IMG/VR virus record: IMGVR_UViG_3300037189_015081
Span: 1 to 64,000 of that record
Direction: 5' to 3' (one strand)
Source of the DNA: a virus
DNA: 64,000 bases
How positions within the stretch are numbered: position 1 is the stretch's first letter; each line of letters begins with the position of its first letter. Under the pieces are notes generated by a model, which saw only the letters and a program-made list of their open reading frames with translations, made no database searches and was not told where the DNA came from. Positions 7,906 to 39,481 of this stretch are shown piece after piece. A program made the translations under genes and the position numbers.

Positions 7906-8919
7906 ATGTTTATCACAATTGAAGGCACAGACGCCTCAGGTAAAACCTCTCTTATCGAGGCCGTAGCAACCGAGCTACGCACGCGCTACCCTGAACAGGA
8001 AATAACGCAGTTTCACAAAAGCAAACCAGAAGAACTAACACGCCGCTGGGTTCTAAACGACTACGTGAACTCGATCGAGGCGATCGACTGGTCTACGCGT
8101 GTAGCGCTCTCAGACCGCTGGCATTGGGGTGAAATAACATACGCGCCGAAATATCGACCGGCAACAAACAAGGACGGCTACGGTCTACTCGGCAAGGCTG
8201 GATGGCGCTGGGTCGAGCTCTTCATGCAGTCCCGCGGTATCGCGCAGTACTGGCTTTATCAGCCCCTAGATGTCATCGAGGCGCGCCTAGCGGCACGCGG
8301 AGACGAGTTCGTAAAGGTCGAAGACCTGCGCGAAATACTTGCCCAGTACGAGATCGCCAATCAGGTGTCAGTGATCCGTAGCAAGATTCAACCGCCAGCC
8401 GACAGCCTTGACAAAATCCCGTCCATCGCCAAACTTATCGTCGATGACGCGGAACAGGTTGCCGCGTGCGTCAAGCCGCTCTCTGCTTTTCCTTACTACA
8501 TCGGTGCGCACAAGCCGAAGGTTCTTCTCGTCGGTGACCGGCACAACGCGACCAAACGCTACGGCAAGGAAACCGATCTGCCGTTCATGCCAGTTGACGG
8601 TAATTCCGCAGAGTACCTGTTGAACTCCCTGCCCGGTGATCTCTGGAAAAACGTCGGTATCGTCAACATCAATGACGGGACAAACGCGGAATCCTTTGAG
8701 ACTCTCTGGAACGTTCTAGGAAAACCACCAGTCGTTGTGCTCGGGAGACTGGCCGAGAAAACGCTAACGCAGATGCTGTTTAGCCAAGATAACTACGTCG
8801 TGCTGCCTCACCCGCAATTTGTACGCCGATTTGCAAACAACCACCAATCAGAGTACGGCGATGCAATCGCACGACTCGCAACAACAATGGACAAGGAAGA
8901 CAAATGGATCCTGCGGTAA
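7906..8919 (+). CDS. Thymidylate-kinase-like protein fused to UDG-like domain
   Basis: 337 residues. Residues 1-180 form a dNMP-kinase-like P-loop domain with Walker A G-T-D-A-S-G-K-T at 7-14 and a lid-like arginine-rich segment (L-A-A-R-G-D-E-F) near 125. Residues ~195-330 resemble the uracil-DNA glycosylase superfamily: V-L-L-V-G-D near 205, L-P-F-M-P-V-D-G-N-S-A, V-N-I-N-D, V-V-V-L-G-R-L-A and a late L-P-H-P-Q motif. Kinases of this family make dNDP from dNMP. In a phage with a modified base they phosphorylate the modified monophosphate. The role of the glycosylase-like half is not clear, since the usual catalytic motifs are not all obvious. Its end overlaps the start of the thymidylate-synthase-fold gene, implying coupled translation. 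Confidence 0.7.
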   Translation: MFITIEGTDASGKTSLIEAVATELRTRYPEQEITQFHKSKPEELTRRWVLNDYVNSIEAIDWSTRVALSDRWHWGEITYAPKYRPATNKDGYGLLGKAGWRWVELFMQSRGIAQYWLYQPLDVIEARLAARGDEFVKVEDLREILAQYEIANQVSVIRSKIQPPADSLDKIPSIAKLIVDDAEQVAACVKPLSAFPYYIGAHKPKVLLVGDRHNATKRYGKETDLPFMPVDGNSAEYLLNSLPGDLWKNVGIVNINDGTNAESFETLWNVLGKPPVVVLGRLAEKTLTQMLFSQDNYVVLPHPQFVRRFANNHQSEYGDAIARLATTMDKEDKWILR

Positions 8920-9761
8920 TCAACATTCAAGACGGCGTCAACGGCTACGTTGACCTGGTCCAGCACGTGCTCGAACACGGCAAGGAGGTCGCGCCTCGCG
9001 GAATGAAAACGCGTGAGATCGAGGACGCGATTATCCGCATCGACGACGTGTACAACGCGCTGCCGCTTAACATTAATCGCGGAACGGTTCCAGGTATCGG
9101 TGCCGTCGAGGCAATGCAGCTTCTTGCCGGCGTCAGTGACCCTGAACTTGTCATCGCGGTAGGTCCACAGTTTAAGAACTACGCCGAGGACAATGGACAG
9201 TTCCACGGTGCGTACGGTTTGCGAACCGCTGGACAATACGAGGTTGTTGTCGATCGACTCAAGAACGACCCCGACACTCGACAGGCCGTTGTCACGATCT
9301 GGGATCCAAAGTTCGACACTCTCCCGGAGAAACGCGACTATCCGTGCACGGTACTGCACCAGTTCCGTATCCGCGACAACAGGCTCAACATGAGCATCTA
9401 CATGCGATCAAATGACGTATGGCTCGGTTCCGCGTATGACTTCTTCCAGTTTACCCGCGTACAGCTCGCAATCGCGTCCGTTCTCGGTATTGAACCTGGA
9501 ACGTACAACCACCACGTCGGGTCGCTGCACATCTATGAGCAGCACTATGACGTCGCTGATCGTCTCACCAAAACGGACGAGTACACGCGGGTACCATACA
9601 TCCAGGGATCAACCTGGAATGAGATTAAAACACAGGCGTTCCTGGCGCTTGAATCAGCCAAGAACCCAGAGCTACGCGGCGCTCTCACTGAGGACGCCGC
9701 GTGGTACGGTGACGCCATGCGAAACGCCGTGCTCAAGAACAAGGCCAAGGCGGAAAACTAA
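8904..9761 (+). CDS. Thymidylate synthase-fold protein, probable dCMP hydroxymethylase
   Basis: 285 residues. ThyA-family landmarks: Y-G-L-R near 104-107, D-T-R-Q-A near 124, catalytic Cys148 in Y-P-C, R-S-N-D at 168-171, L-G-S-A-Y-D at 174-179 and H-I-Y at 209-211. Aligning from Cys148 without gaps places Asp179 at E. coli ThyA Asn177, the residue that reads uracil. T4 dCMP hydroxymethylase has the same Cys148 and Asp179, and Asn-to-Asp changes in thymidylate synthase shift preference to dCMP. So the likely reaction is folate-dependent modification of dCMP rather than dTMP synthesis. ATG 8904 overlaps the kinase gene by 16 bases. Substrate preference is inferred from one residue; plain thymidylate synthase remains possible. 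Confidence 0.75.
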   Translation: MDPAVINIQDGVNGYVDLVQHVLEHGKEVAPRGMKTREIEDAIIRIDDVYNALPLNINRGTVPGIGAVEAMQLLAGVSDPELVIAVGPQFKNYAEDNGQFHGAYGLRTAGQYEVVVDRLKNDPDTRQAVVTIWDPKFDTLPEKRDYPCTVLHQFRIRDNRLNMSIYMRSNDVWLGSAYDFFQFTRVQLAIASVLGIEPGTYNHHVGSLHIYEQHYDVADRLTKTDEYTRVPYIQGSTWNEIKTQAFLALESAKNPELRGALTEDAAWYGDAMRNAVLKNKAKAEN

Positions 9762-9763
9762 AA

Positions 9764-10243
9764 ATGGCAATCGAGCGTCCTTCATGGGACACGGTGTGGA
9801 TGGACGTCGCGGAAACCGTGGCGCTCCGTTCGCGCTGCTCCCGTGCGCAGGTCGGGGCGGTTATCGTTTCACGCGAACAGCGCATTAGCGCGACGGGTTA
9901 CAACGGTCCCGCGGCAAACTGGCCCGAGCCGGGTGACTGTATTGACTGGTGCCCGCGTGCTCAAGGTAAGACGGCACTTGACAACACATATGACGCGTGC
10001 CCTGCGATTCACGCTGAGGCAAACGCGCTTCTGTACGTCGACCGTTCGCATGTTGAAGGCGGGACGATCTATGTCACCGGTGCGTGCTGCATGCAGTGCG
10101 CAAAACTGATCTCTAATTCTGGTATCGCAAAGGTTGTCATGAAGGTGCGCGACATTGATCTGCACCGTAAGCCAGAAATGGTCGTAGACTACCTTGTTAA
10201 GTGCGGGATCGATGTAACTTCTATCGGAGGAAACCCGCAATGA
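9764..10243 (+). CDS. dCMP deaminase
   Basis: 159 residues, the usual length for phage dCMP deaminases. The zinc site is visible: H-A-E at about residues 84-86 (catalytic Glu) and C-C-M-Q-C at about 108-112, a variant of the common P-C-x-x-C. The N-terminal R-S-R-C-S-R-A-Q-V-G-A-V-I-V segment is also typical. It converts dCMP to dUMP, feeding dTMP synthesis. It starts two bases after the previous stop and its TGA overlaps the ATG of the polymerase gene, so it is part of the same operon. If the preceding enzyme uses dCMP, the two would compete for substrate, as in T4, which also has both. Confidence 0.88.
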   Translation: MAIERPSWDTVWMDVAETVALRSRCSRAQVGAVIVSREQRISATGYNGPAANWPEPGDCIDWCPRAQGKTALDNTYDACPAIHAEANALLYVDRSHVEGGTIYVTGACCMQCAKLISNSGIAKVVMKVRDIDLHRKPEMVVDYLVKCGIDVTSIGGNPQ

Positions 10244-12063
10244 CAACAGGACCAATGACAGATGTCGAGCTAACGCTCGTCGACTCGACAGAGAAGGCGC
10301 AAGAGTTTCTGGCGTGGCTCAGCGAGCGTCGTCCATACAACGCGCTGGGAATCGACATCGAAACCGGTGAGAAGCCTGGTAACAATAAGAAGGACGCTTT
10401 CTCGCCATGGCATGGCGACATTCGTCTCGTCCAGGTTGGTGACTCTATGCACGGCTGGGCCATTCCCTGGGAGGAATGGGCTGGCGTGTTCTACGAGGCA
10501 ATGGAGAAGTTTGACGGCCCGATCGTCTGTCACAATATCGCCTTTGAAGCTCGCTGGTTTGACGTAAAGTCTCGCTGGAAGATGCCGTGGGAGCGCGCAC
10601 ATGACACGATGATCATGGCGCACATCATCGACCCGCTTGGTTCCGGTGCACTCAAGCAACTCGCCGCCCTACACGTCGACGGTCGCGCGGTCGCGCTGCA
10701 AAGCACGCTTGACCAGGAGTTCGCAAAGAACGGCTGGACGTGGGGAACGGTTCCTATTACCTATCAGCCATACTGGGCGTATGGCGCGCTCGACACGGTT
10801 TTAACCATGCGCCTGTGGGAACAGTTCTGGGAAAAGTGCGGACCAAACGGGCCGTATAGCCGACCATACGAATTGGAAATGGCTACGCGCAAGATCGTTA
10901 CGCGCATGGAGCTCAATGGTGCGCGTATCGACCTGGACTACTCGCGTAAGAAGTTTGATCAACTCACCGAGTACGCGGAGTCCGTAAAAGTCTGGGCTGC
11001 ACAAAACTACAATGGTGCGTCGATCACGAGTAACATTCAGCTTGTGCGGCTGTTCCAGGACCTTGGCGCAGAGATCACGTCCTTTACCCCGAGCGGTCAA
11101 CCATCAGCCGACAAGGACCAGCTTAAGTATCTTGCCGCTGAAGGTAATGACGCGGTGCGCCAACTTGCCGAGGTCGTGTTGAAGCAGCGCAAGGCAGACA
11201 AGCTAGCCAACACATACTTCAAGAACTTCCTTGAGGACAACATCGGCGGGTTTGTTCACCCGTCCGTCAAGACGCTTGGCGCACGTACGTCGCGTATGTC
11301 TATTACCGCGCCCGCGCTACAGACACTGCCTAAGGGTGACGACGTTGTGCGCCGTGCGTTCCTGCCTAAGGACGAGGATCACGTCATTATCACGTCCGAC
11401 CTCGACCAGGTCGAGTTCCGCATGTTTGCGTCACTGTCTAATGACCCTAACCTGATCAGTCTGTTCCACAAGGCGGACGCGACTGGTTCTGATCCGTTCA
11501 CGGAGATCGGTCGCGAGATCTATCAAGACCCGACGATGCAGAAATCGGACAAGCGTCGTAATCTCATCAAGGGAACAGTTTATGGTCGCCTGTACGGTGC
11601 TGGAGTTTCCAAGCAGGCAATCACTGCTGGCGTGGCAAAGAGCCAGATGCAGGCGGTTTCCGACGCGTTTGACACACGCTACCCGGGAATGGCCATGTTC
11701 CAGAAGCAGATTGAAGATACTGGGATGCGTCGTTTGCGCTCTGAAGGACAGGGCTACGTGAACACGTGGACTGGTCGTCGACTCCCATGTGACGAGGATC
11801 GCGTATACACGCTGGTGAACTATCTCATTCAGGGTGGTGCTGCCGAGGTTTTCAAGTCTAATCTTGTGAAGCTTGACCAGGCTGATCTGACTGAGCTGCT
11901 TATCGTTCCAGTGCACGACGAAATCGTGCTAAACGCTCCGCGTAAGGACGCACAGGAGATTATGAACATAGTGCAGCAGTGCATGACAACAAGCGAGGGT
12001 TGGCAGGTACCACTTACTTCTGGTATCGACGGTCCTCTTGAAACGTGGGGAGACAAGTACTAA
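10240..12063 (+). CDS. Family A DNA polymerase with 3'-5' exonuclease domain
   Basis: 607 residues from ATG 10240, preceded by CGGAGG. Residues ~30-200 are a proofreading exonuclease: G-I-D-I-E (Asp39, Glu41), C-H-N-I-A-F-E and Y-G-A-L-D-T. The polymerase has motif A S-D-L-D-Q-V-E-F-R (catalytic Asp387), motif B R-R-N-L-I-K-G-T-V-Y-G (Lys444, Tyr448) and motif C V-H-D-E (Asp560). No 5'-3' exonuclease domain is present, as is normal for phage versions. Tyr448 occupies the position of E. coli Pol I Phe762, as in T7 polymerase. It replicates the phage genome together with the helicase, primase and nuclease genes nearby. It overlaps its neighbours by a few bases on both sides. Confidence 0.93.
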   Translation: MTTGPMTDVELTLVDSTEKAQEFLAWLSERRPYNALGIDIETGEKPGNNKKDAFSPWHGDIRLVQVGDSMHGWAIPWEEWAGVFYEAMEKFDGPIVCHNIAFEARWFDVKSRWKMPWERAHDTMIMAHIIDPLGSGALKQLAALHVDGRAVALQSTLDQEFAKNGWTWGTVPITYQPYWAYGALDTVLTMRLWEQFWEKCGPNGPYSRPYELEMATRKIVTRMELNGARIDLDYSRKKFDQLTEYAESVKVWAAQNYNGASITSNIQLVRLFQDLGAEITSFTPSGQPSADKDQLKYLAAEGNDAVRQLAEVVLKQRKADKLANTYFKNFLEDNIGGFVHPSVKTLGARTSRMSITAPALQTLPKGDDVVRRAFLPKDEDHVIITSDLDQVEFRMFASLSNDPNLISLFHKADATGSDPFTEIGREIYQDPTMQKSDKRRNLIKGTVYGRLYGAGVSKQAITAGVAKSQMQAVSDAFDTRYPGMAMFQKQIEDTGMRRLRSEGQGYVNTWTGRRLPCDEDRVYTLVNYLIQGGAAEVFKSNLVKLDQADLTELLIVPVHDEIVLNAPRKDAQEIMNIVQQCMTTSEGWQVPLTSGIDGPLETWGDKY

Positions 12064-12518
12064 TGCGCGCAATCCTAGCAGTGGATCCAGGTAAGGCAAC
12101 TGGAATGGCGTTGTTCACCAAGCAGCCAAATGAGGAACCTGTTCTCGTATGGTCGATCGAGGTGCAACAGCACGAGTACGCTCAGCCGATTAGGCAGACG
12201 CTTGCGCAGTACCCAGACGCCGAGGTCGTGTGCGAACGGTTTACCATCAACGCGCAGACCGTCAAGAACTCACAGGCACCGTTCTCTCTTGAGCAGATCG
12301 GTATCCTTAAGCAGTGTCTCCTCGATGTCGGGCGTTCAGCTGATGACGTGTATTTCCAGTCACCGGCTGACGCCAAGGCGATGTTTCCTAACCCGGCGTT
12401 GAAAAAACTTGACTACTGGCATAAGGGCGGAGAAGGACACGCCATGGACGCAATCAGGCATGGCATGTTGCGTTTTGTAAAAACGGGATGGAAGCCTGTC
12501 CGCCTGCTTCAAGAATAA
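12063..12518 (+). CDS. RuvC-like Holliday junction resolvase
   Basis: 151 residues, ATG 12063 overlapping the polymerase stop (TAATG). The RNase H fold is shown by A-V-D-P-G-K-A-T-G at about 5-13 (first catalytic Asp), V-V-C-E-R-F in the middle (catalytic Glu) and G-H-A-M-D-A-I-R-H near residue 127 (last acidic residue). It would resolve recombination or replication branch points before packaging. An upstream in-frame ATG inside the polymerase gene is less likely. Confidence 0.85.
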   Translation: MRAILAVDPGKATGMALFTKQPNEEPVLVWSIEVQQHEYAQPIRQTLAQYPDAEVVCERFTINAQTVKNSQAPFSLEQIGILKQCLLDVGRSADDVYFQSPADAKAMFPNPALKKLDYWHKGGEGHAMDAIRHGMLRFVKTGWKPVRLLQE

Positions 12519-12523
12519 AAACA

Positions 12524-12571
12524 GGTACTAAGCAGAAAAAGTGATTTATTCTGCAAAAAACCTGATAGTAT
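12524..12571 (+). promoter_or_regulatory. Promoter with GGTACTAAGC operator-like site
   Basis: Intergenic region before the SNF2 gene. GGTACTAAGC at 12524-12533 matches the motif repeated five times at 59.4-59.55 kb. GCAGAA (12531-12536) and TTCTGC (12549-12554) form an inverted repeat. TGATAGTAT at 12563-12571 is an extended -10 (the same string precedes the gene at 62703). The GGTACTAAGC site lies just upstream of the expected -35 position, a good place for a repressor or activator. Confidence 0.5.
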
Positions 12572-12601
12572 TAGAAACATAAAGACGAAAGGACGGTGTT
12601 C

Positions 12602-14407
12602 ATGCACGCAAACGTAGAACTCGACGACACGGGTAAGAGCATCATTATTGACACCGACTGGCGGTTCAAGGAGCTCTGCAAGAGTCTCCCCGGTGCCAAG
12701 TGGGATCCTAAAACGCAGCAATGGCGTGTACCCACGTCGTGGGCGACATGCCTCGCCTTGCGCTCAACGTTCCGCGAAGATCTCACCATTGGACCTGGAC
12801 TTGCCGCTTGGGCGGCCAATGAGCGCGCAACGCGTGTCGACCCGGCCAATGCGTTTCGTGGTCTTGAGACGGCCGAGGACGCCTCTAATGAGGACCTGTT
12901 CCCGCACCAACGCGCCGGGGTCCAGTTTCTGCACACCGCGCGACGTGCCCTGCTCGCTGATGAGCCCGGTCTCGGTAAAACCGCGCAGGCAATCCGTTCA
13001 TTGAAGAAGTTCGCCGACAATGATGAGACGCCGTTCCCCGCGCTTATTGTTTGTCCAAACACGCTTAAGAAAAACTGGGCACGTGAGTTCGGTCGCTGGT
13101 GGCCAGAAGCAAAGGTAACCGTTATCAAGGGTTCAGCTGCTCAACGACGCCTTCAATTCGAGGATGGCGCCGATGTCTATGTGATCAACTGGGAATCGCT
13201 GCGTTCGCACTCGCGCTTGGCGCCGTACGGCTCAGTTGCTCTTGCTCGCTGCGTATCCTGCGGCGGTCATGACGAGAAGATCACGGAAAACCGTTGCGAG
13301 GTTCACCTGCGCGAACTAAACAGTATTCAATTCAAGGCCGTCGTTGCCGATGAGATTCACCGTTCAAAGGATCCAAAAAGCAAGCAGTCACGCGCGCTGT
13401 GGGCTGCAACCGGTGACGCGGATATTCGCTTTGCCTTAACTGGTACACCAATCGCAAATAACGTCATCGACCTGTGGGCAATCATGCACTGGTTGTCACC
13501 GGAAGAGTGGCCAAGTAAGACGCGCTGGATTGACCGCACGGTCGACACGATGATGAACGCTTTTGGTGGAATGCTTGTCCTGGGTATCAAGCCAGCCATG
13601 CAATCCGAGTTTGACGCGACAATCAACCCGCGTATGCGGCGCATGCTCAAAAAGGTCGTGCTGCCCTGGCTACCAGACATGATGTTCGAGCGTCGCGACG
13701 TTGAGATGTCGACAAAGCAGGCAAAGGCGTATAAGCAGATGCGCGATCTAATGATTGCCGAGCTCGACGGAAGCGACGCGCTAACCGCGCCTAGCGCGCT
13801 GACGCAGACAACGCGTCTACTGCAATTTGCGAGCGCGTACGCTGAGATCACGCTCGACGAGTCAACGGGTGAGCAACAGGTAAAGCTTACGGCGCCATCG
13901 TGCAAGGTTGACGCGCTCATGGACGACATAAAGAACGGCGACTTTGGTGACGACTCAGTCGCCGTGTGCGCAGTTTCACGTCAGCTCATCGAGATCCTGA
14001 GCGCCGAGCTGACAAAGGCTAAGATTCCGCACGGGTTGATCACCGGTGCGCAAACGGAGGACGAGCGCCAACAGGCCGTTGACGACTTCCAGTCCGGTAA
14101 GACAAAGTGGGTATTGTTCACCGCGCAGGCTGGTGGTGTTGGTATCACACTGACTGCGGCACGACGACTCGTCATGCTGCAGCGCCCGTGGTCACTTGTT
14201 GACCACAAACAGGCACTTGATCGCGTGCACCGTATCGGCTCAGAAATCCACGAGTCCATCATCGTGACAGACTATGTTACCGAGGGAACAATCGAGGAGC
14301 GCGTCATCCAGGTTCTAGAAACCAAGGCTGACAACTTTGAGCAGATCGTACGCGACCGCGATCAGTTGCTTGCACTACTAAAAGACGACAAGGCAGGTAA
14401 GCTCTAA
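12602..14407 (+). CDS. SNF2-family helicase
   Basis: 601 residues; ATG 12602 is preferred over the GTG at 12596 because AAAGGA is well spaced for it. Motif I is D-E-P-G-L-G-K-T (from Asp120), motif II D-E-I-H (from Asp250), motif III L-T-G-T-P-I, and the C-terminal lobe has A-G-G-V-G-I-T-L and the R-V-H-R-I-G motif VI, which place it in the SNF2 group of superfamily 2. A C-x-x-C pair (C-V-S-C-G-G) sits near residue 220 between motifs I and II and could hold zinc. Phage members of this family act in replication-fork remodelling or recombination. The stop overlaps the next ATG (TAATG). Confidence 0.9.
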   Translation: MHANVELDDTGKSIIIDTDWRFKELCKSLPGAKWDPKTQQWRVPTSWATCLALRSTFREDLTIGPGLAAWAANERATRVDPANAFRGLETAEDASNEDLFPHQRAGVQFLHTARRALLADEPGLGKTAQAIRSLKKFADNDETPFPALIVCPNTLKKNWAREFGRWWPEAKVTVIKGSAAQRRLQFEDGADVYVINWESLRSHSRLAPYGSVALARCVSCGGHDEKITENRCEVHLRELNSIQFKAVVADEIHRSKDPKSKQSRALWAATGDADIRFALTGTPIANNVIDLWAIMHWLSPEEWPSKTRWIDRTVDTMMNAFGGMLVLGIKPAMQSEFDATINPRMRRMLKKVVLPWLPDMMFERRDVEMSTKQAKAYKQMRDLMIAELDGSDALTAPSALTQTTRLLQFASAYAEITLDESTGEQQVKLTAPSCKVDALMDDIKNGDFGDDSVAVCAVSRQLIEILSAELTKAKIPHGLITGAQTEDERQQAVDDFQSGKTKWVLFTAQAGGVGITLTAARRLVMLQRPWSLVDHKQALDRVHRIGSEIHESIIVTDYVTEGTIEERVIQVLETKADNFEQIVRDRDQLLALLKDDKAGKL

Positions 14408-15348
14408 TGGCAACCGAATACCCTATCCGCGTATCAAACTCGGAGCTACAAACATTCAAGGACTGTCGTCGACGCTGGTGGTTGAACTACTACCGTCGTT
14501 TGCGACCACTGCAGGAAAATAAGACCGGTGCACTTGCGCTCGGCTCGCGCGTGCACAATGCGCTTGACATGTACTATTCGCAGGGCGTACCTCTTCTTGA
14601 AGCGCACAAACACTTCCTTGACATTGACCGTGCTAATCTTGAGGCGGCGTTCCAGGACACGTCCGATCTCGACACCGAGGGAGAACTCGGGCGTATCATG
14701 CTTGAAGGATACCTTGAATGGGTCGAGGAAAACGGTATTGACGCTGAACTAGAGATGATCTCCACCGAGGAGATTATCGAGATGCCGCTACTCGACGGCA
14801 AGGTTATCCTTCAAGGCAAGATCGACATGCGCGTTCGCCGGAAGGCAGACGGCGTTCGAATGTTCCGCGACTTCAAGACCGTTGGTGGTTCATTCACGGA
14901 CTTTACCGCCCTGGCCCACATGAACGAGCAGATCCTTACCTATATGATGCTCGAGGCTGCACAGAACAAGGACGGCGAGCGCTCAGAGGGTGGTATCTTT
15001 ACCATGCTCAAGAAGGTGAAGAGATCCGCTAATGCCCGTCCGCCTTTCTATGAGCAGATGGAAGTTCGTCATAACATTTTCGCGCTACGCAACTTTTGGC
15101 AGCGTATTCACGGTACAATTACTGACCTGGTAAACGTCCGTGACGCGCTTGATGAAGGAGCTAATCACCAGTTTGTAGTCTATCCGCGTCCGTCGCGTGA
15201 CTGCAAATGGAAATGTCCATTCTTTGCTGTTTGTCCTTTGCTCGACGACGGTTCCGCCGGTGAGCAGGCGATCAGCGAGTCGTATCGGGTCGCCGATCCG
15301 TACGGGTACTACAACAACAACACCGAAGAGAAGGGAAGTGAGATTTAA
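14407..15348 (+). CDS. Cas4/RecB-like PD-(D/E)XK nuclease with Fe-S cysteines
   Basis: 313 residues. N-terminal V-S-N-S-E-L-Q-T-F-x-D-C-R-R-R-W-W is the classic start of the family. The nuclease core is G-K-I-D-M-R followed by D-F-K-T, giving the D...D-x-K active site near residues 140-158. Cys20 and C-terminal Cys266, Cys270 and Cys276 are arranged like the 4Fe-4S cluster of Cas4/AddB-type nucleases. It lies between the SNF2 helicase and the Sak4-like ATPase, the usual actinophage recombination-replication order. Confidence 0.88.
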   Translation: MATEYPIRVSNSELQTFKDCRRRWWLNYYRRLRPLQENKTGALALGSRVHNALDMYYSQGVPLLEAHKHFLDIDRANLEAAFQDTSDLDTEGELGRIMLEGYLEWVEENGIDAELEMISTEEIIEMPLLDGKVILQGKIDMRVRRKADGVRMFRDFKTVGGSFTDFTALAHMNEQILTYMMLEAAQNKDGERSEGGIFTMLKKVKRSANARPPFYEQMEVRHNIFALRNFWQRIHGTITDLVNVRDALDEGANHQFVVYPRPSRDCKWKCPFFAVCPLLDDGSAGEQAISESYRVADPYGYYNNNTEEKGSEI

Positions 15349-15350
15349 CT

Positions 15351-16100
15351 ATGGCAAACCAAGTTCAACGATCACTCACCATCATGGTGTACGGAGAGTC
15401 GAAGGTCGGTAAGTCGACATTCGCAGTAACCGCACCATATCCCCGTCTCATGCTCGACGTGGAAGGCGGTCACCGCTTCCTTCCAATCAACGTCAAGTAC
15501 TGGGATCCACTTCGTGAGGAGCCGCCGCAGGCGGATGGCACATGGGACACAGTTGTCGTCAACGTTCGTGATTACGAAGTTGTCGTCAAGGCGTTCCAGT
15601 GGCTTCAGAGCGGTAAGCACCAGTTCAAGTCCTTGATCATTGACTCCATCTCGGAGCTCCAGGTTAAGTGCATGGACAGCATCGCCGGTAGCGAGCAAAT
15701 GAAGATGCAGCAGTGGGGCGAACTTCTTCGCCACATGGGTGCGCTTCTTCGCGATCTTCGCGATCTCACGATGCACCCGACACAGCCGTTGGAGGCGGTT
15801 GTCCTTACCGCAATGGCTCGACCTGGACAGGACGGTCGCATGCGTCCGTACCTTCAGGGACAGCTCGCGATTCAGGCACCGTACTTCTACGACATTCTTG
15901 GCGCCATCAACGTCGAGACCGTACCAAACCAGGACCCGATGCAGCCGCCTCACAAGGTGCGCCGCATGTATGTCGAACGCACTGATGACTATGAAGCAGG
16001 CGAGCGCGTGCAGGGACGTCTTGGTAAAATCGTTGAGCAGCAGGACCTCGGGGTTGAACGCATGCTCGACATGATCTTTGGTCCCAAGGCCGAAGGTTAG
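15351..16100 (+). CDS. Sak4-like RecA-family ATPase
   Basis: 249 residues. Walker A G-E-S-K-V-G-K-S-T at 15-23, Walker B-like S-L-I-I-D-S-I-S near residue 95. The short RecA-like core with Y-G-E-S-K-V-G-K-S at the very N-terminus is characteristic of the phage Sak4 single-strand annealing group. It sits directly before a DUF669-like ssDNA-binding protein, a common pairing in which the binding protein stimulates the annealase. It starts three bases after the previous stop, with GGAAG upstream. Confidence 0.82.
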   Translation: MANQVQRSLTIMVYGESKVGKSTFAVTAPYPRLMLDVEGGHRFLPINVKYWDPLREEPPQADGTWDTVVVNVRDYEVVVKAFQWLQSGKHQFKSLIIDSISELQVKCMDSIAGSEQMKMQQWGELLRHMGALLRDLRDLTMHPTQPLEAVVLTAMARPGQDGRMRPYLQGQLAIQAPYFYDILGAINVETVPNQDPMQPPHKVRRMYVERTDDYEAGERVQGRLGKIVEQQDLGVERMLDMIFGPKAEG

Positions 16101-16155
16101 CAACACAACATCCCGACCAAGGTGGTCGGAGCGATGAAAAATAAGGAGAAATACC

Positions 16156-16722
16156 ATGAGCTCACTCAACTGGGGTGACCTTGTAAAGGACGCAGGAGAC
16201 GTAGGAAGCTACGAACCTCTGCCCGATGGTGACTACGACCTCGTAGTTGTCGAGGCAACCGCCAAGACTGCACAGTCTGGCAAGACCATGTTCGCTATCA
16301 AGGCGCAGGTGCAGAACGGACCACACGCGAAGCGTCTGGTTTGGGACAACCTCGTTGTAACACCCGACAGCCCTGGTGCTCTCGGAATGTTCTTCCGCAA
16401 GATGGCCGGTCTCGGTCTGAACCGCGAGTTCTTCTCGCAGAACCCGTCAAACGCACAGATCGAGGCTGCTCTCCAGCAGCGTCCATTCCGTGCCCAGATC
16501 GGTTCGCGCGTCTGGAACGGCTCGAAGAAGAACGAGATCAAGATGTACTACGTCGCTAACGCGGCTACCGCATCTGCGGCGCCTGTCGCTGCTGCTCCGG
16601 CACCGGCGCCTGCGCCAGCTCCGGCACCAGCTCCAGCAGCGCCGATCGCTGAGGCTCCTGCTGCAGCGGCGCCTGCGCCAGCTCCGGCACCAGCTCCAGC
16701 TGCGCCTGCTGAACCGTTCTAA
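16156..16722 (+). CDS. DUF669-like ssDNA-binding protein with Ala-Pro tail
   Basis: 188 residues. Residues 1-130 resemble DUF669 proteins (L-P-D-G-D-Y, G-x-x-M-F-A-I-K-A, R-L-V-W-D-N-L), which are OB-like ssDNA-binding partners of Sak-type annealases. Residues ~133-185 are almost only Ala and Pro, encoded by tandem GCGCCTGCGCCAGCTCCG-like repeats, and the protein ends A-E-P-F. This resembles the flexible linker plus terminal P-F tip of SSB proteins, which recruits replication partners. A strong AAGGAGA ribosome binding site precedes the ATG, fitting high expression. Confidence 0.72.
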   Translation: MSSLNWGDLVKDAGDVGSYEPLPDGDYDLVVVEATAKTAQSGKTMFAIKAQVQNGPHAKRLVWDNLVVTPDSPGALGMFFRKMAGLGLNREFFSQNPSNAQIEAALQQRPFRAQIGSRVWNGSKKNEIKMYYVANAATASAAPVAAAPAPAPAPAPAPAPAAPIAEAPAAAAPAPAPAPAPAAPAEPF

Positions 16723-16741
16723 TCTAGAGCGCTCAATCGGG

Positions 16742-16773
16742 TCGCCGTCCGTAGCCATCGCTGCGGGCGGCGA
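16742..16773 (+). terminator. Intergenic 10-bp hairpin, possible attenuator
   Basis: TCGCCGTCCG (16742-16751) pairs with CGGGCGGCGA (16764-16773) with one G-T pair and a 12-base loop. No T-run follows, so it is more likely an mRNA-stabilising or partial termination structure between the ssDNA-binding gene and the glycosyltransferase pair. Confidence 0.4.
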
Positions 16774-16796
16774 TCCAGCACCTGAATAGGAAACAC

Positions 16797-18008
16797 ATGA
16801 AAATCCTTATGACCGGATTCACGGCTCTTCAAATCAACAGCGAGAAGCGCGTGATCCAGAAAATTGACGTCCCAGCGTTTATCGCCAAGGCCCTTACAGA
16901 ACTAGGGCACGACGTGGACTGGCGTCGCGTGGAAACTGGCGAGGATCTCTCTGGTTACGATCTTGCCTGGGTAAACCTTGCACCACTGCACTCATTGAAC
17001 GGTCGCCAAGGCGCGATGGGTTCACTCTATACTTTGTCGTCAGGTATTCCGTGCGTCGGATTCTTTGACGACTGGCAGTTCAGCGCCGTGTTCAATGGCG
17101 CAAAGGCTCTTGTCCGTAAACCAAGTATTCTCTACAAGCACCTGCTCGTAGGAACCGAACATCGCGGCGAAGAAGGCGCGACGTACTTTAGTCGCAAGGA
17201 CATCGAGGAAGCTGTTGCGCGCATCGCGGAAAAGGATCCTGTAGCCGCGAAGAAGTGCACCATTGAGCGTTACTACATGCTCGACACTGACGAGAAGATC
17301 GAACCGTACGAGAAGCAACTCGTGCAGGCCGCTGAAGACTTCCTGAGTGACCGTTGGGCAGCAGGCATGGTTCCAGTTTGCCCGATGTACTCGTTCGGTG
17401 ATCGCGCTGGCGTGCGCAAACGCATGCCGAAAGGTGTTGGCCCGATCGAGGCGCTTGATCCGTCCGCTGTCGTCAACGACACGCTTAACGCGGTAACGCC
17501 TGCCAAGCCTGAAGAAAAGGCACGAGGATGGGTACTAGGTGCGCTCATGCCGCATGATACCTGGCTTGAAAAGAAGAATCCGGCATGGCCAGTTGAAATT
17601 GTCGGTAGTCGCAAGCTTATTCGCAAGATGGGCGGTCAGCGCTTCGGCACCGAGCAAGAGGTTCTTGAGTTCTACAATAAGTACTGGGGAATCATGTCCC
17701 CGCCGTACATGCATGCGGGTTCAGGCTGGTGGCGCTCGCGTTTTATCTATGCCGCGCATATCGGGTCTGTTCTCATCACTGACAAGGGTGAAGGCGATCC
17801 ACTAGGTGACCCGTACAGGCTCACCATCAGCGACGTAGAGGCAATGGACCAGGCGCAACTGGCTGCCGCTGCGCAAGCACAACGCGATGCACTGATGCCA
17901 CTTCTTGGAACATACGATCAGTTCAAGGCACATGTTGAACGAATCGTCGACCGTGCCATCGCCGAGGACAAGGGTCTTAAACTGAACGCGGACGGTTCAC
18001 GCGCATGA
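16797..18008 (+). CDS. GT-B-like glycosyltransferase 1, possible DNA glycosyltransferase
   Basis: 403 residues. The N-terminal Rossmann-like half has M-K-I-L-M-T-G-F, A-L-T-E-L-G-H-D-V-D and G-F-F-D-D-W at 88-93. The C-terminal half has G-W-V-L-G-A-L near 245, V-E-I-V-G-S and W-W-R-S-R at 311-315 followed by I-G-S-V-L-I-T-D. The order and spacing resemble T4 beta-glucosyltransferase (its catalytic F-T-D-I-R and its R-V-W-E-T-M ... V-M-L-I-D segment), although sequence identity is low and the T4 Glu272 position is Tyr here. It is paralogous to the next gene. AGGA precedes ATG 16797. Neighbours (next GT, NTP pyrophosphatase, hydroxymethylase-like gene) suggest sugar transfer to modified DNA. 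Protein or cell-wall glycosylation is the alternative. Confidence 0.55.
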   Translation: MKILMTGFTALQINSEKRVIQKIDVPAFIAKALTELGHDVDWRRVETGEDLSGYDLAWVNLAPLHSLNGRQGAMGSLYTLSSGIPCVGFFDDWQFSAVFNGAKALVRKPSILYKHLLVGTEHRGEEGATYFSRKDIEEAVARIAEKDPVAAKKCTIERYYMLDTDEKIEPYEKQLVQAAEDFLSDRWAAGMVPVCPMYSFGDRAGVRKRMPKGVGPIEALDPSAVVNDTLNAVTPAKPEEKARGWVLGALMPHDTWLEKKNPAWPVEIVGSRKLIRKMGGQRFGTEQEVLEFYNKYWGIMSPPYMHAGSGWWRSRFIYAAHIGSVLITDKGEGDPLGDPYRLTISDVEAMDQAQLAAAAQAQRDALMPLLGTYDQFKAHVERIVDRAIAEDKGLKLNADGSRA

Positions 18009-19036
18009 GTAACGTACTTATTACCGGCATGACCGCGTCCCACACATCCGAGGCAACCAATCAGCGCGCACTATCATTCGCTGGCGTAGTTGCCAAGGCG
18101 CTAGCGAGTACTGGTCACACGGTGACAATAAGCGCGCCCGACATGCGGTGGACGCTTGATGAACTAGCCCGCTACGACTCTGTCATCGTCGGGATCGCGC
18201 CTCTCACGAGTGTCACCGCGAGTAACGCGTATGGCGGGTTGCACGTCATTGACCTGCTATGGACGGATCCACGGCTAACGCTTATGGTTGACGCGCCACG
18301 CCCAGTGCAGATTGGCGCCAGCCTGCGCTCGATTATCGGAACACCGGATAACCTTGTAAAACCGTTTTACTCTAAGCGACGCGGATACAGTGTCGCGGCG
18401 GAGAAGGAGACATCCGCGCGTCTTCTTGAAACAACGCGCAGACTGCTAGAGGAGGAGTGGCCAGCAACTATCTACCCGTCGCTGCCGTGGCACGACGCGG
18501 AAGCTATGCGGGCTCAGTTCCCAGACGGAACCAAGACTCTCTACGGCGTAAATCTTGACGCCTTTCTTGTCTCCGGTGAACCTCCTCGATGGGATAAGAC
18601 AACCGCCAGTTGCTGGGTTGCTGACGATCCTAAAGCCGCGTGGATCCAGAAGATCGTTCCAACAATCGGAGACGAGGTTGCCCCGATGAAGAACGACTCG
18701 TGGCAAAGTGACGATGACGTAGACAAGCGGATTGGCGAGTCACGTGGATCACTTATCACATCCCACCGGGAAGGAACCTGGTGGACGTACCGTATCATCC
18801 AGTCACTAAACAATGGCACGCCGGTTGCGACTGATTGGCGTGAGGCAAGTATCATTGGTTCTTCGTGGGGAATTCTTCCATCCGCAATAGAATCATTGTA
18901 TGGCCGCGACATCGAGAACCTTGCATGGAATCAATTAGATGAGTACATGCAGCACATCCCGTCACGTGACGAGGCTGGCAAGGCGCTAAAAACAATCATC
19001 GGAAGCGACAGTTCAAAACGAAAGGCAAGTAAATGA
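18005..19036 (+). CDS. GT-B-like glycosyltransferase 2, paralog of preceding gene
   Basis: 343 residues; ATG 18005 overlaps the previous TGA by four bases. Same layout as its neighbour: N-terminal V-L-I-T-G-M-T, A-L-A-S-T-G-H-T-V, R-Y-D-S-V-I-V-G-I-A-P-L, L-M-V-D-A (Asp96, matching Asp91/92 of the neighbour), then C-W-V-A-D near 203 and W-W-T-Y-R at 259-263 followed by G-T-P-V-A-T-D. The two proteins have diverged strongly, so they may add different sugars or act in sequence, as the alpha and beta enzymes do in T4. Function is inferred from fold-like motifs and context. Confidence 0.52.
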   Translation: MSNVLITGMTASHTSEATNQRALSFAGVVAKALASTGHTVTISAPDMRWTLDELARYDSVIVGIAPLTSVTASNAYGGLHVIDLLWTDPRLTLMVDAPRPVQIGASLRSIIGTPDNLVKPFYSKRRGYSVAAEKETSARLLETTRRLLEEEWPATIYPSLPWHDAEAMRAQFPDGTKTLYGVNLDAFLVSGEPPRWDKTTASCWVADDPKAAWIQKIVPTIGDEVAPMKNDSWQSDDDVDKRIGESRGSLITSHREGTWWTYRIIQSLNNGTPVATDWREASIIGSSWGILPSAIESLYGRDIENLAWNQLDEYMQHIPSRDEAGKALKTIIGSDSSKRKASK

Positions 19037-19518
19037 CACTATTTGGATCCTGGCTTGGCGACACCCGCAAGCTCCAGGAAGAAGGATTCAAGATCGACTA
19101 CGCGGCGATGACAGGTGATGAACCTGAAAAGATCAACGCGCTGATCGAGTATATTCGCTGGAACATGCTGGCAATCGACGATGAAATGGCTGAGATGCGT
19201 CAACCTATTTCGTGGAAGCCGTGGCAACACGACATGCCGTACGCTGACCGCGAGGAAGTTATCAAGGAGGCCGTTGACGTTCTGCATTTCGTGGCAAACA
19301 TCATTGTCGCCTGCGGCGGAACGGACGAGCAACTCAATGAGTTCTACTCGGCAAAGATGGAGAAAAACCGCCAGCGCCAGCTCAAAGGGTACGAGGTAAA
19401 GGCCGCCGGAGTAAAGTGCACGATCTGTACGCGAGCCATTGATGACGTGGGGGCTGGACGCACCGAGGGCGTCTGCGCCAAGTGCGAGCCGGTCAGCGAG
19501 GAGAACGGCAATGCCTAA
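19033..19518 (+). CDS. MazG/dimeric dUTPase-like NTP pyrophosphatase with zinc ribbon
   Basis: 161 residues; ATG 19033 overlaps the previous gene by four bases. The all-alpha NTP-PPase motif E-x-x-E ... E-x-x-D is present at Glu51-Glu54 and Glu79-Asp82, followed by F-Y-S-A-K-M-E-K-N-R-Q-R-Q-L-K-G-Y, typical of dimeric dUTPases. T4 dCTPase-dUTPase (gp56) belongs to this superfamily. A C-terminal zinc ribbon (Cys129, Cys132, Cys148, Cys151) is an added domain. The likely reaction is hydrolysis of dUTP and/or dCTP to the monophosphate. Tight coupling to the two glycosyltransferases favours dCTP removal in a cytosine-modification pathway, but ordinary dUTP clearance is equally allowed by the motifs. 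Confidence 0.75.
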   Translation: MTLFGSWLGDTRKLQEEGFKIDYAAMTGDEPEKINALIEYIRWNMLAIDDEMAEMRQPISWKPWQHDMPYADREEVIKEAVDVLHFVANIIVACGGTDEQLNEFYSAKMEKNRQRQLKGYEVKAAGVKCTICTRAIDDVGAGRTEGVCAKCEPVSEENGNA

Positions 19519-20130: not shown

Positions 20131-20498
20131 TGGCAGACTACGATTATCAACAACCAGGAAACGTTCCACCTCAGGTTGACGCGGAGCCGCAACTTCCTCC
20201 TCCAGGAAGCGCCCCGCTTAGGGTTGAAGCTCTCCGCGATGCGGCGCGGATTATCAATGGAAGCCGCGATGCACAGTACGGCAGTCCAATAGATAACTTT
20301 GATCGTATCGCTCGAATATGGTCGGTTATTCTAGGGATCGACGTGACCCCTGAAGACGTTGCCATGTGTATGGCGGGATTGAAGATGGCGCGCTATGCGT
20401 CAAAGTCCGGGTTTCAACCTGACACCTGGATCGACCTCGCCGGCTACGCTGGATGCGGATTTGAGGTAGGAAAACTCGCCTCAGAGAAAAACAGCTAG
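20130..20498 (+). CDS. DUF6378-like protein
   Basis: 122 residues. After a Pro/Gln-rich N-terminus, R-D-A-Q-Y-G-S-P-I-D-N-F-D-R-I-A and M-A-G-L-K-M-A-R ... D-x-W-I-D-L-A-G-Y match a small phage domain known as DUF6378 (all-alpha, possibly related to the NTP-pyrophosphatase group). Biochemical role unknown. Translationally coupled to both neighbours. Confidence 0.68.
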   Translation: MADYDYQQPGNVPPQVDAEPQLPPPGSAPLRVEALRDAARIINGSRDAQYGSPIDNFDRIARIWSVILGIDVTPEDVAMCMAGLKMARYASKSGFQPDTWIDLAGYAGCGFEVGKLASEKNS

Positions 20499-20761
20499 TG
20501 TCGGACGAGCGTTTTAGGGTGTACCCGCAGTGTGAGGTATGCTGGATAGAGGAGAACTCTACCTGGGAACCTGACGGGGTAAGCTCTGACGGAAAACTTG
20601 TCGCAAGAATGTCTGCCATTGCGGTTCCTGTTGATCTTGAGCCTGGTCAAGTAAACGTATGTTGCGTGTGCGGTGAACTGACCGTCGTAGGGATTTTTGT
20701 AGAGCGAGAAAAGGCTGACGTGGTATACGACATTGACCCTAGGGACATAATTCAACAGTAA
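20498..20761 (+). CDS. Hypothetical protein with two C-x-x-C pairs
   Basis: 87 residues from GTG 20498. C-E-V-C near residue 10 and C-C-V-C-G near 53 could bind one zinc ion. Last gene of the chain that began at 16797. Function not recognised. Confidence 0.58.
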   Translation: MSDERFRVYPQCEVCWIEENSTWEPDGVSSDGKLVARMSAIAVPVDLEPGQVNVCCVCGELTVVGIFVEREKADVVYDIDPRDIIQQ

Positions 20762-20763
20762 CC

Positions 20764-20772
20764 TGATATATT
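20764..20772 (+). promoter_or_regulatory. Extended -10 promoter (TGATATATT)
   Basis: TG-A-TATATT 37 bases before ATG 20809, in the short gap after the previous operon, with a GTAAGGACA ribosome binding site following. It belongs to the TGATATAAT family seen at 7871, 61041 and 63607. Confidence 0.45.
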
Positions 20773-20808
20773 AGTTCTACCAAATGACGCAAGACGTAAG
20801 GACACGGT

Positions 20809-21339
20809 ATGCAGACGTTCATTCCACAAGAAGCATCATTCGCAAAGATGGCCGAGCCACTCGACCGCCAACGGCTGAACAAGCAGGCGCTTGAAGGTTG
20901 GCAGATACTTCTTACTCTTCTCGAGCTCGATCCGCAAGGTAATCACCGCGATCCAAAAGGCTGGAAGACCCACCCGGCCGTGACCATGTGGCGTGGCCAT
21001 GAGACTGCGCTATACCAATACGTCCAGCAGATGGTTGTCGAATGGAAGGCGCGCGGCTACAACTCGACTATTGGCGACAAAGCGCAGGCAACCATTCTTC
21101 GCGCGCACCAACTTGGCAAGATCGACAGCACTGTTATTACTTACCCTTGGTGGATCCAGGACACCTCGGCATTTGCACGGATAGCATCGTCCCACCGGGT
21201 TGCGCTTCTGCGCAAGAACTATGAGTGGTATTCACAGTTCAACTGGCCGGAAGACGCGGGAACGCAACCAGACTACTACCAGTACCTGTGGCCAAGTGAA
21301 AACGGCGACCTCGTTCTTGGAACATTCAACAACGCATAA
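20809..21339 (+). CDS. MSMEG_6728-family, pyrimidine-dimer glycosylase-like protein
   Basis: 176 residues. M-Q-T-F-I-P, L-D-R-Q-R-L-N-K-Q, H-P-A-V-T-M-W-R-G-H-E and E-W-K-A-R-G-Y are the hallmarks of the MSMEG_6728 family, which is related to T4 endonuclease V-type pyrimidine-dimer DNA glycosylases. Expected role is repair of UV damage or another DNA lesion, possibly with altered specificity. Transcribed from its own extended -10 promoter. Family identification is by recognition of the motif series. Confidence 0.72.
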   Translation: MQTFIPQEASFAKMAEPLDRQRLNKQALEGWQILLTLLELDPQGNHRDPKGWKTHPAVTMWRGHETALYQYVQQMVVEWKARGYNSTIGDKAQATILRAHQLGKIDSTVITYPWWIQDTSAFARIASSHRVALLRKNYEWYSQFNWPEDAGTQPDYYQYLWPSENGDLVLGTFNNA

Positions 21340-33120: not shown

Positions 33121-33531
33121 ATGTATGAATATCGAGTAAAGTCAGTTCTCAATGTCGTTGACGGCGACACGATCGACGTTGACATCGACCTGGGGTTTGA
33201 CATCTCGCTGACAAAGCGCGTGCGACTCGCGGGCATTGACACGCCGGAATCGCGCACGAGCGACGACAATGAAAAGACCTTTGGTCTTGAAGCCAAAGAG
33301 GTTCTTAAGAAAGCTCTTGAACACGCAAAGGTAGTCGTGATTCGCACTGAACTGCCAGACTCGTCTGAAAAATACGGACGAATTCTTGGCTGGCTCTATA
33401 TCGACGGGGCTCAGGAATCATTCAACAAGACGCTGGTATCGTCTGGGTACGCCTGGGACTACGCTGGTGGAACCAAGGTAAAGGACTTCGAGATTCTTAA
33501 GCAGCGACGTGCCGCTGCAGGTATCAAGTAG
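33121..33531 (+). CDS. Staphylococcal-nuclease-like endonuclease
   Basis: 136 residues. V-D-G-D-T near 16-20 (metal-binding Asp), R-V-R-L-A-G-I-D-T-P-E-S (catalytic Arg and Glu) and K-Y-G-R-I-L-G (second catalytic Arg) match the TNase/SNc family. No signal peptide, so it acts inside the cell, probably in host DNA breakdown or phage DNA processing. ATG three bases after the previous stop. Confidence 0.9.
   Translation: MYEYRVKSVLNVVDGDTIDVDIDLGFDISLTKRVRLAGIDTPESRTSDDNEKTFGLEAKEVLKKALEHAKVVVIRTELPDSSEKYGRILGWLYIDGAQESFNKTLVSSGYAWDYAGGTKVKDFEILKQRRAAAGIK

Positions 33532-38140: not shown

Positions 38141-39481
<1,341 letters not shown>

What the first reader, a model, noticed from the sequence alone, without database searches (positions are those of the whole stretch)
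7906..19518. Candidate T4-like cytosine hypermodification pathway in an actinophage
One rightward region holds a dNMP-kinase-like gene, a thymidylate-synthase-fold enzyme with the dCMP-selecting Asp, a dCMP deaminase, a family A polymerase, two paralogous GT-B-like proteins and a MazG/dUTPase-like pyrophosphatase. T4 uses the same set of functions (dCMP hydroxymethylase, HMdCMP kinase, dCTPase, alpha and beta glucosyltransferases) to make glucosylated 5-hydroxymethylcytosine DNA. Here the parts appear to come from different sources (a kinase fused to a UDG-like domain, a pyrophosphatase with a zinc ribbon). Seen: motifs and gene order. Established: T4 pathway. Inferred: that these proteins act together on cytosine.
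Basis: partly seen in the sequence, partly recalled or inferred. Interest (0 to 1): 0.85.

Follow-up and report, generated by a model that had tools for sequence, protein, structure and literature searches.

The report
Actinophage cytosine-hypermodification operon, swappable sugar cassette
This freshwater phage carries a conserved set of genes that very probably changes the letter C of its DNA into a sugar-coated form, as phage T4 does, and its relatives swap the sugar-attaching genes at one fixed position, hinting at different sugars and possibly undescribed DNA bases.

Summary
The thymidylate-synthase-like protein (8904-9761) has the cytosine-selecting Asp179 and the Asp three residues before the catalytic Cys, the published hallmark of hydroxymethylases. 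Asp145-Cys148 is invariant in 56 distinct proteins (55 of 56 for Asp179). The third published signature residue (Ser94) is Gly here. Both orphan proteins (16797-18008, 18005-19036) fold as GT-B glycosyltransferases and are paralogues. GT1's best-fitting solved structures by TM-score are T4 beta-glucosyltransferase; GT2 matches the orthologue of RB69's proposed arabinosyltransferase.

The operon is conserved in a large freshwater group. All 56 usable loci fetched through the synthase alone have a glycosyltransferase as the first gene after ssb, in three exchangeable cassettes: GT1+GT2; GT1+UDP-galactopyranose mutase+GT2; another GT-B+APH-like kinase+HAD+nucleotidyltransferase. The last resembles RB69's arabinosyl-hmC set in kind, not by clear homology. 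GT1 homologues lie beside UDP-galactopyranose mutase in two T4-like phages that encode gp42-type hydroxymethylases.

Best reading: dCMP is hydroxymethylated, phosphorylated, incorporated and glycosylated. Sugar, extent and chemistry are unproven. A C5-cytosine methyltransferase in most relatives argues against complete replacement.

The parts
7906..8919 (+). P-loop dNMP (thymidylate-like) kinase, residues ~1-160, with a conserved C-terminal domain that may be UDG-like; candidate hm-dCMP kinase
   Evidence: PHROG 761 thymidylate kinase E 8e-14; family profile vs PDB: YorR 8e-10, thymidylate kinases; weak Pfam UDG hit in 6 of 13 relatives
8904..9761 (+). candidate dCMP hydroxymethylase (thymidylate-synthase fold): Cys148, Asp145 (C-3), Tyr104, Asp179
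   Evidence: Pfam Thymidylat_synt 2.5e-28; best PDB match CMP 5-hydroxymethylase MilA; signature residues in 55-56 of 56 distinct relatives compared with the T4 dCH criteria of PMC6400193
9764..10243 (+). dCMP deaminase
   Evidence: PHROG 174 E 1e-42, Pfam dCMP_cyt_deam_1 6e-20
10201..12063 (+). family A DNA polymerase with 3'-5' exonuclease domain
   Evidence: Pfam DNA_pol_A 2e-53
12045..12518 (+). RuvC-like resolvase (name from the syntenic DSL-LC01 gene)
   Evidence: PHROG 1981 E 3e-20; synteny with DSL-LC01 'RuvC-like resolvase'
12596..14407 (+). SNF2-type DNA helicase
   Evidence: Pfam SNF2-rel_dom 1.5e-38
14407..15348 (+). PD-(D/E)XK exonuclease
   Evidence: Pfam PDDEXK_1 8e-22
15351..16100 (+). 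RecA-like/AAA_24 recombinase
   Evidence: Pfam AAA_24 1e-17
16156..16722 (+). single-strand DNA binding protein; upstream border of the exchangeable sugar cassette
   Evidence: Pfam DUF669, PHROG 378; border role
16797..18008 (+). GT1: GT-B glycosyltransferase, candidate hmC-DNA glycosyltransferase
   Evidence: AF2 pLDDT 86.0; all 26 PDB matches at E<=1e-3 are GT-B enzymes, T4 BGT with the best TM-scores 0.50/0.57; dN/dS about 0.06-0.08 against its two closest relatives
18005..19036 (+). GT2: paralogous GT-B glycosyltransferase, candidate second hmC or sugar-on-sugar transferase
   Evidence: AF2 pLDDT 91.7; all 6 PDB matches at E<=1e-3 are glycosyltransferases of GT-B type, incl. phage HY126 GT = RB69 ORF003c orthologue; paralogy
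19033..19518 (+). all-alpha dUTPase/MazG-like pyrophosphatase with C-terminal zinc-ribbon-like Cys pairs; candidate dCTPase/dUTPase; downstream border of the cassette
   Evidence: Pfam dUTPase_2 1e-10; alignment with invariant Cys129, Cys132, Cys151

Best explanation
A phage-encoded cytosine hypermodification pathway, functionally like T4's. (1) The pyrophosphatase (19033-19518) removes host dCTP (and dUTP) from the pool, giving dCMP. (2) The TS-fold enzyme (8904-9761) adds CH2OH to C5 of dCMP, using methylene-THF and water instead of hydride transfer. (3) The kinase (7906-8919), with a host NDP kinase, makes hm-dCTP. (4) The family A polymerase incorporates it. (5) After replication GT1, with GT2, transfers sugar from a nucleotide sugar to the 5-hydroxymethyl group, or GT2 adds a second sugar. 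The dCMP deaminase sends part of the dCMP to dUMP for dTTP synthesis, by a host thymidylate synthase since no ThyX was found in this record. Related phages exchange the cassette between ssb and the pyrophosphatase, so the sugar probably differs between lineages. Shown: genes, folds, diagnostic residues, conservation, cassette exchange. Inferred: every reaction, the sugar, and that the modification is in virion DNA.
For: Asp179 and Asp145 (C-3), the published dCH determinants (PMC6400193), are present and invariant or nearly so. Asp at this position was among the top two residues that distinguish TS proteins on contigs with experimentally modified cytosine (PMC8670742). Nearest solved homologue is a CMP 5-hydroxymethylase. 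GMA2, a Gordonia phage with the same TS type, also has ThyX, so there this enzyme is not needed for dTMP. GT-B folds with T4 BGT and the RB69-type transferase among the matches. 56 of 56 TS-seeded loci with room have a GT directly after ssb, 39 GT1 and 17 the other GT-B. Cassette types: GT1-GT2, GT1-UGM-GT2, GTB-GT2, GTB-APH-HAD-NT(-GT2). GT1 homologues sit next to UGM in T4-like FBB1 and phiAS4, which carry gp42-type TS proteins with Ser-x-Tyr, Asp(-3) and Asp179; also with an Asp-type TS in a Manatee Spring siphovirus and Gordonia phages.
Against: No chemistry on virion DNA. The Ser94 signature of T4 dCH is Gly in this family. A C5-cytosine methyltransferase gene lies just downstream in 29 of 32 related loci, which would be useless if every C carried a C5 substituent; this phage's record has none. 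The pyrophosphatase matches dUTPases; no dCTPase was matched. TM-scores are moderate (0.50/0.57 for GT1, about 0.44 for GT2), and no DNA-binding or acceptor specificity can be read from them. A GT1 homologue also occurs near queC in Vibrio phage 6E35.1a, whose only TS found is of the ordinary Asn type, and in C48C1 without any TS, so the GT family is not strictly tied to hmC.
Confidence: 0.75

Rival explanations
1. Hydroxymethylation is real, but GT1 and GT2 do not act on DNA: they decorate the virion or the host surface (superinfection exclusion, receptor masking), and sit in the operon for expression timing.
For: Phage GTs often have such roles; the DSL-LC01 paper reads the UGM as a cell-wall gene (PMC10611076). 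Some GT1 homologues occur without a hydroxymethylase.
Against: The cassette lies between ssb and the pyrophosphatase in the replication operon, with a GT after ssb in 56 of 56 usable TS-seeded loci, and is exchanged there for a different GT-B. The fold matches include T4 BGT and the RB69-type transferase. UGM-GT1 pairs occur in T4-like phages with gp42-type enzymes.
Confidence: 0.12
2. The TS-like enzyme is a dCMP methylase (as in Xp12, 5mC DNA) and the GTs are unrelated.
For: Asn to Asp at this position alone turns thymidylate synthase into a dCMP methylase (cited in PMC8670742).
Against: Asp at C-3, which activates water in T4 dCH and is Leu in TS, is invariant here; TS Trp83 is Tyr or Phe and Trp80 aligns with Phe; MilA is the nearest solved homologue. 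A methyl group offers no acceptor for the associated GTs.
Confidence: 0.06
3. An ordinary pyrimidine operon for dTTP supply: dUTPase, dCMP deaminase, thymidylate synthase, thymidylate kinase; the Asp does not change the substrate.
For: The gene set dUTPase, dCMP deaminase, TS, TMK is a known dTTP route, and no ThyX was found in this record.
Against: Asp179 and Asp145 are fixed in the family. GMA2 has a separate ThyX beside the Asp-type TS. D179N in T4 dCH makes negligible product (PMC6400193), i.e. the residue decides. It does not explain the GT cassette.
Confidence: 0.04

Closest known systems
T4 glucosyl-hmC pathway (gp42, gp1, gp56, cd, alpha-gt, beta-gt)
   Same: Same functions in the same logic: all-alpha dCTPase/dUTPase-like enzyme, dCMP hydroxymethylase signature, dNMP kinase, dCMP deaminase, two GT-B transferases; GT1's best structural match by TM-score is BGT
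   Different: No close sequence relation: TS-like enzyme's nearest solved relative is MilA and it lacks Ser94, thymidylate-kinase-like kinase with an extra domain, family A polymerase, no Pfam match for either GT, all in one compact operon; sugar unknown
RB69 arabinosyl-hmC pathway (ORF003c GT, ORF53_52c RmlA-APH fusion, p051, p055)
   Same: GT2's fold matches the ORF003c orthologue; the alternative cassette in relatives (GT-B, APH-like kinase, HAD, nucleotidyltransferase) has the same kinds of enzyme
   Different: Profiles of the alternative cassette do not significantly match the RB69 proteins (best E 0.02 for APH, 0.26 for NT); the window itself has no sugar-activating genes in this slot
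5-carbamoyloxymethylcytosine phages (MetaGPA, PMC8670742)
   Same: Asp-type TS beside dCMP deaminase and pyrophosphohydrolase genes, with a variable hmC-decorating enzyme
   Different: Decoration enzyme is a carbamoyltransferase, not a glycosyltransferase
Actinomycetia phage DSL-LC01 (OQ999401)
   Same: Same operon in the same order, TS 64% identical
   Different: UGM between GT1 and GT2, a C5-cytosine methyltransferase and a tryptophan halogenase downstream; in the passages I read its authors propose no DNA glycosylation and read the UGM as a cell-wall gene

Membership tests
dCMP hydroxymethylase (T4 gp42 type) | Asp at the base-selecting position (T4 Asp179) instead of TS Asn177 | tested here: met
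   D179 in the window, 55 of 56 distinct relatives
dCMP hydroxymethylase (T4 gp42 type) | Asp (or Glu) three residues before the catalytic Cys (T4 Asp145), Leu in TS | tested here: met
   D145-Y-P-C148, 56 of 56; criterion from PMC6400193
dCMP hydroxymethylase (T4 gp42 type) | Ser or Thr two residues before the active-site Tyr (T4 Ser94-x-Tyr96) | tested here: not met
   Gly102-x-Tyr104 in 56 of 56. SPO1 gp29, recorded as dUMP hydroxymethylase, also lacks it (Ala), so it may not be needed outside the gp42 branch; I therefore claim 'works like', not 'is a gp42 orthologue'
dCMP hydroxymethylase (T4 gp42 type) | Makes 5-hm-dCMP | not testable with these tools
   needs enzyme assay
GT-B glycosyltransferase fold | Two Rossmann-like domains, matches to solved GT-B enzymes | tested here: met
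   GT1: 26 of 26 PDB matches at E<=1e-3 are GT-B. GT2: 6 of 6
DNA (hmC) glycosyltransferase | Transfers sugar to hmC in DNA | not testable with these tools
   only fold and genome context
T4 beta-glucosyltransferase family | Sequence homology to BGT | tested here: not met
   profile search of PDB with 15 GT1 relatives found no BGT; resemblance is of fold only
dCTPase/dUTPase (all-alpha NTP pyrophosphatase) | Pfam dUTPase_2 family membership | tested here: met
   Pfam 1.1e-10 over the cut-off; dUTPases in PDB 7e-6. dCTP preference not testable
RB69-type UDP-pentose activation set | Homologues of ORF53_52c, p051, p055 | tested here: not met
   no such genes in the window operon; alternative cassettes of relatives resemble them only in enzyme class

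The most novel reading that the evidence does not exclude
A large group of freshwater actinophages builds glycosylated 5-hydroxymethylcytosine DNA with a fixed hydroxymethylation core and a recombining sugar slot, so that close relatives differ in the sugar on their DNA. In UGM-bearing members the sugar would be a furanose (galactofuranose, or arabinofuranose), a DNA sugar I found no report of.
Probability: 0.35. Interest if true: 0.82.

Novelty: new variant of a known kind. Interest (0 to 1): 0.64.

Why it matters
Glycosylated hmC is documented in T4-like phages of Gram-negative hosts. A conserved pathway of this type in an abundant freshwater actinophage group (450 IMG/VR stretches encoding GT1 relatives in one scan) would extend it to Actinomycetota, supply two orphan GT families with a function, and give a natural series in which only the sugar cassette varies over a constant core. 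That would make it possible to ask how phage DNA sugars diversify against restriction enzymes, CRISPR and base-excision defences, and would give the phage UDP-galactopyranose mutase, so far read as a cell-wall gene, a testable role in DNA modification.

Tried and rejected
Patchwork origin of the operon: rejected, gene order is constant in relatives. Nucleotide similarity to known phages: only one 72.8% stretch in a RecA-like gene of Microbacterium phage Cece. A scan of viral contigs with GT2 alone found nothing, because the pattern peptides were too specific; alignments worked. RB69 homology of the alternative cassette: tested by profile, not significant. BGT homology by sequence: none. UDG nature of the kinase C-terminus: only weak hits. 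ThyX, UGM and C5-methyltransferase in this phage's own 116,681-base record: none found, though the record may be incomplete and the UGM search had no positive control. Host from bacterial genome contigs: one remote GT1 hit in a Bacteroidetes bin, not informative. Literature on hmC in Gordonia or other actinophages and on UGM with hmC: nothing found in the held library.
Full report
What was checked. The window is bases 1-64,000 of a 116,681-base virus record. The reported region holds a compact rightward operon: kinase, thymidylate-synthase-like enzyme, dCMP deaminase, family A polymerase, a RuvC-like resolvase, SNF2 helicase, PD-(D/E)XK exonuclease, RecA-like ATPase, ssb, two orphan proteins (here GT1 and GT2) and a dUTPase_2/MazG-like pyrophosphatase with a Cys-rich tail, followed by a DUF6378 protein, a pyrimidine dimer glycosylase and a WhiB-like protein.

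The synthase. Its best solved relative is the CMP 5-hydroxymethylase MilA. The T4 dCMP hydroxymethylase paper gives residues that separate hydroxymethylases from thymidylate synthases: Asp179 for cytosine, Asp145 three residues before the catalytic Cys for activating water (Leu in TS), and Ser94 two residues before the active-site Tyr (PMC6400193). The window protein has D179, D145-Y-P-C148 and Y104, but Gly in place of Ser94. Over 56 distinct relatives, D145, C148 and Y104 are invariant, D179 is in 55 and Gly102 in 56. SPO1 gp29, recorded as dUMP hydroxymethylase, also lacks the Ser and keeps Asn where this family has Asp, so Ser94 may not be needed outside the gp42 branch. Independently, MetaGPA found position 177 to be one of the two positions that best distinguish TS proteins on environmental contigs with modified cytosine, mostly Asp there and mostly Asn on unmodified contigs (PMC8670742). 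Gordonia phage GMA2 carries the same Asp-type enzyme plus a separate ThyX, which argues that the Asp-type enzyme does not serve dTMP synthesis there.

The glycosyltransferases. Neither protein has a Pfam match. AlphaFold2 models are confident (GT1 mean pLDDT 86.0, GT2 91.7). All PDB matches at E <= 1e-3 are GT-B enzymes. For GT1 the highest TM-scores belong to T4 beta-glucosyltransferase (0.50/0.57). For GT2 the matches include 'phage HY126 glycosyltransferase', which is the orthologue of RB69 ORF003c (E 5e-249), the transferase proposed for arabinosyl-hmC (PMC6024577). TM-scores are moderate, and sequence profiles do not reach BGT, so this shows fold, not substrate. GT1 and GT2 are paralogues (hhalign E 6.5e-40), and purifying selection is strong.

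Context across relatives. Actinomycetia phage DSL-LC01, a lake metagenome assembly, has the same operon with a UDP-galactopyranose mutase (UGM) between GT1 and GT2; its authors read the UGM as a cell-wall gene (PMC10611076). IMG/VR scans returned 75 loci through the synthase and 450 candidate relatives through GT1, of which 80 were kept. Among the loci fetched through the synthase alone, 56 have enough sequence beyond ssb, and all 56 have a glycosyltransferase as the next gene: GT1 in 39 and a different GT-B in 17. Some of these contigs are near-duplicates, so 56 is not a count of independent events. Complete slots between ssb and the pyrophosphatase, over all loci, were GT1-GT2 (92), GTB-GT2 (2), GT1-UGM-GT2 (1) and GTB-APH-HAD-NT-GT2 (1), none empty; that set is biased towards GT1 because half the loci were fetched with it. 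Contigs cut off before the pyrophosphatase add ten GTB-APH-HAD-NT and two GT1-UGM-GT2 slots. Pfam supports NTP transferase and GLF over cut-off, and APH and HAD just under it. The alternative cassette resembles the RB69 set (RmlA-APH fusion, phosphatase domain, GT-B) in kind, but not by significant sequence similarity.

Independent association. GT1 homologues occur in T4-like phages directly beside UGM genes (Erwinia FBB1, Aeromonas phiAS4). Both phages have, besides other TS-family genes, a gp42-type protein with Ser-x-Tyr, Asp at C-3 and Asp179. Further GT1 homologues are in Gordonia phages with Asp-type TS genes and a MazG-methyltransferase-WhiB neighbourhood like the one in the relatives here and in a Manatee Spring siphovirus with a pyrimidine hydroxymethylase. 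Exceptions are Vibrio phage 6E35.1a, where the homologue lies near queC and the only TS found is of the ordinary Asn type, and C48C1, where no TS was found. So the family is associated with DNA modification more broadly, and not strictly with hmC.

Mechanism. Pyrophosphatase lowers dCTP; the TS-fold enzyme makes hm-dCMP; the kinase and a host enzyme make hm-dCTP; the polymerase incorporates it; GT1 glycosylates the hydroxymethyl group; GT2 either adds a second sugar or acts on other sites. GT2 is kept when GT1 is replaced by the other GT-B, which suggests that GT1 and the other GT-B are alternative first transferases; this is inference. In this phage no UGM was found and none of the alternative sugar-activating genes is in the slot, so the donor would be a host nucleotide sugar. 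Genes, folds, residues and conservation are shown; all reactions and the sugar are inferred.

Doubts. A C5-cytosine DNA methyltransferase follows the pyrophosphatase in 29 of 32 related loci but is absent from this record. If all cytosines carried a C5 substituent it would have no target, so either replacement is incomplete or that enzyme has another role. The kinase's UDG-like domain is weakly supported. dCTP preference of the pyrophosphatase is untested. The actinophage assignment rests on a WhiB-like gene, on the relationship to DSL-LC01 and on the Gordonia and Microbacterium phage matches, not on a host experiment. That the group is 'freshwater' rests on DSL-LC01 and was not checked for each contig.

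Verdict. It is a new variant of the T4/RB69 kind of pathway: a hydroxymethylase outside the gp42 branch, new GT families, and a sugar slot that is exchanged between relatives.

Noticed in passing
L022:10849-11892 and 10 other loci: A GT-A (family 2) glycosyltransferase gene is inserted between the TS-like gene and the dCMP deaminase in 11 of 92 loci; possibly a third sugar transferase of the same pathway.
   Followed up: partly
L001:19375-20619 and same place in 28 other loci; absent at window 20498-20809: A C5-cytosine DNA methyltransferase (PCS in place of the usual PCQ motif in DSL-LC01) lies between the DUF6378 gene and the pyrimidine dimer glycosylase in most relatives but not in this phage.
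   Followed up: partly
L176:259-1215 (Microbacterium phage Franklin22): Annotated thymidylate synthase with Asp at the substrate position but Leu at or next to the position three residues before Cys: a candidate dCMP methylase rather than hydroxymethylase.
   Followed up: no
window 29915-30895: Ribonucleotide reductase small subunit (Pfam 2.5e-76); no large subunit was recognised in the genes examined.
   Followed up: no
window 34455-35513: Family 2 glycosyltransferase with TPR repeats, of the same architecture as the DSL-LC01 gene next to its tryptophan halogenase.
   Followed up: no
L001:23222-24793: DSL-LC01 encodes a tryptophan halogenase (Pfam 5.5e-50) near the operon; role in a phage unknown.
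   Followed up: no
L170:5386-6309 (Vibrio phage 6E35.1a): A GT1 homologue lies a few genes from queC and phosphoribosyltransferase genes, suggesting the GT family may also decorate other modified bases.
   Followed up: partly
L180 (Bacteroidetes MAG contig DGBH01000176): Distant GT1 homologue in a bacterial bin; the same bin holds a gp42-type TS on another contig (L190).
   Followed up: partly
window 33121-33531 and 38141-39481: A staphylococcal-nuclease homologue, and a protein with collagen-like triple-helix repeats, probably a virion fibre.
   Followed up: no
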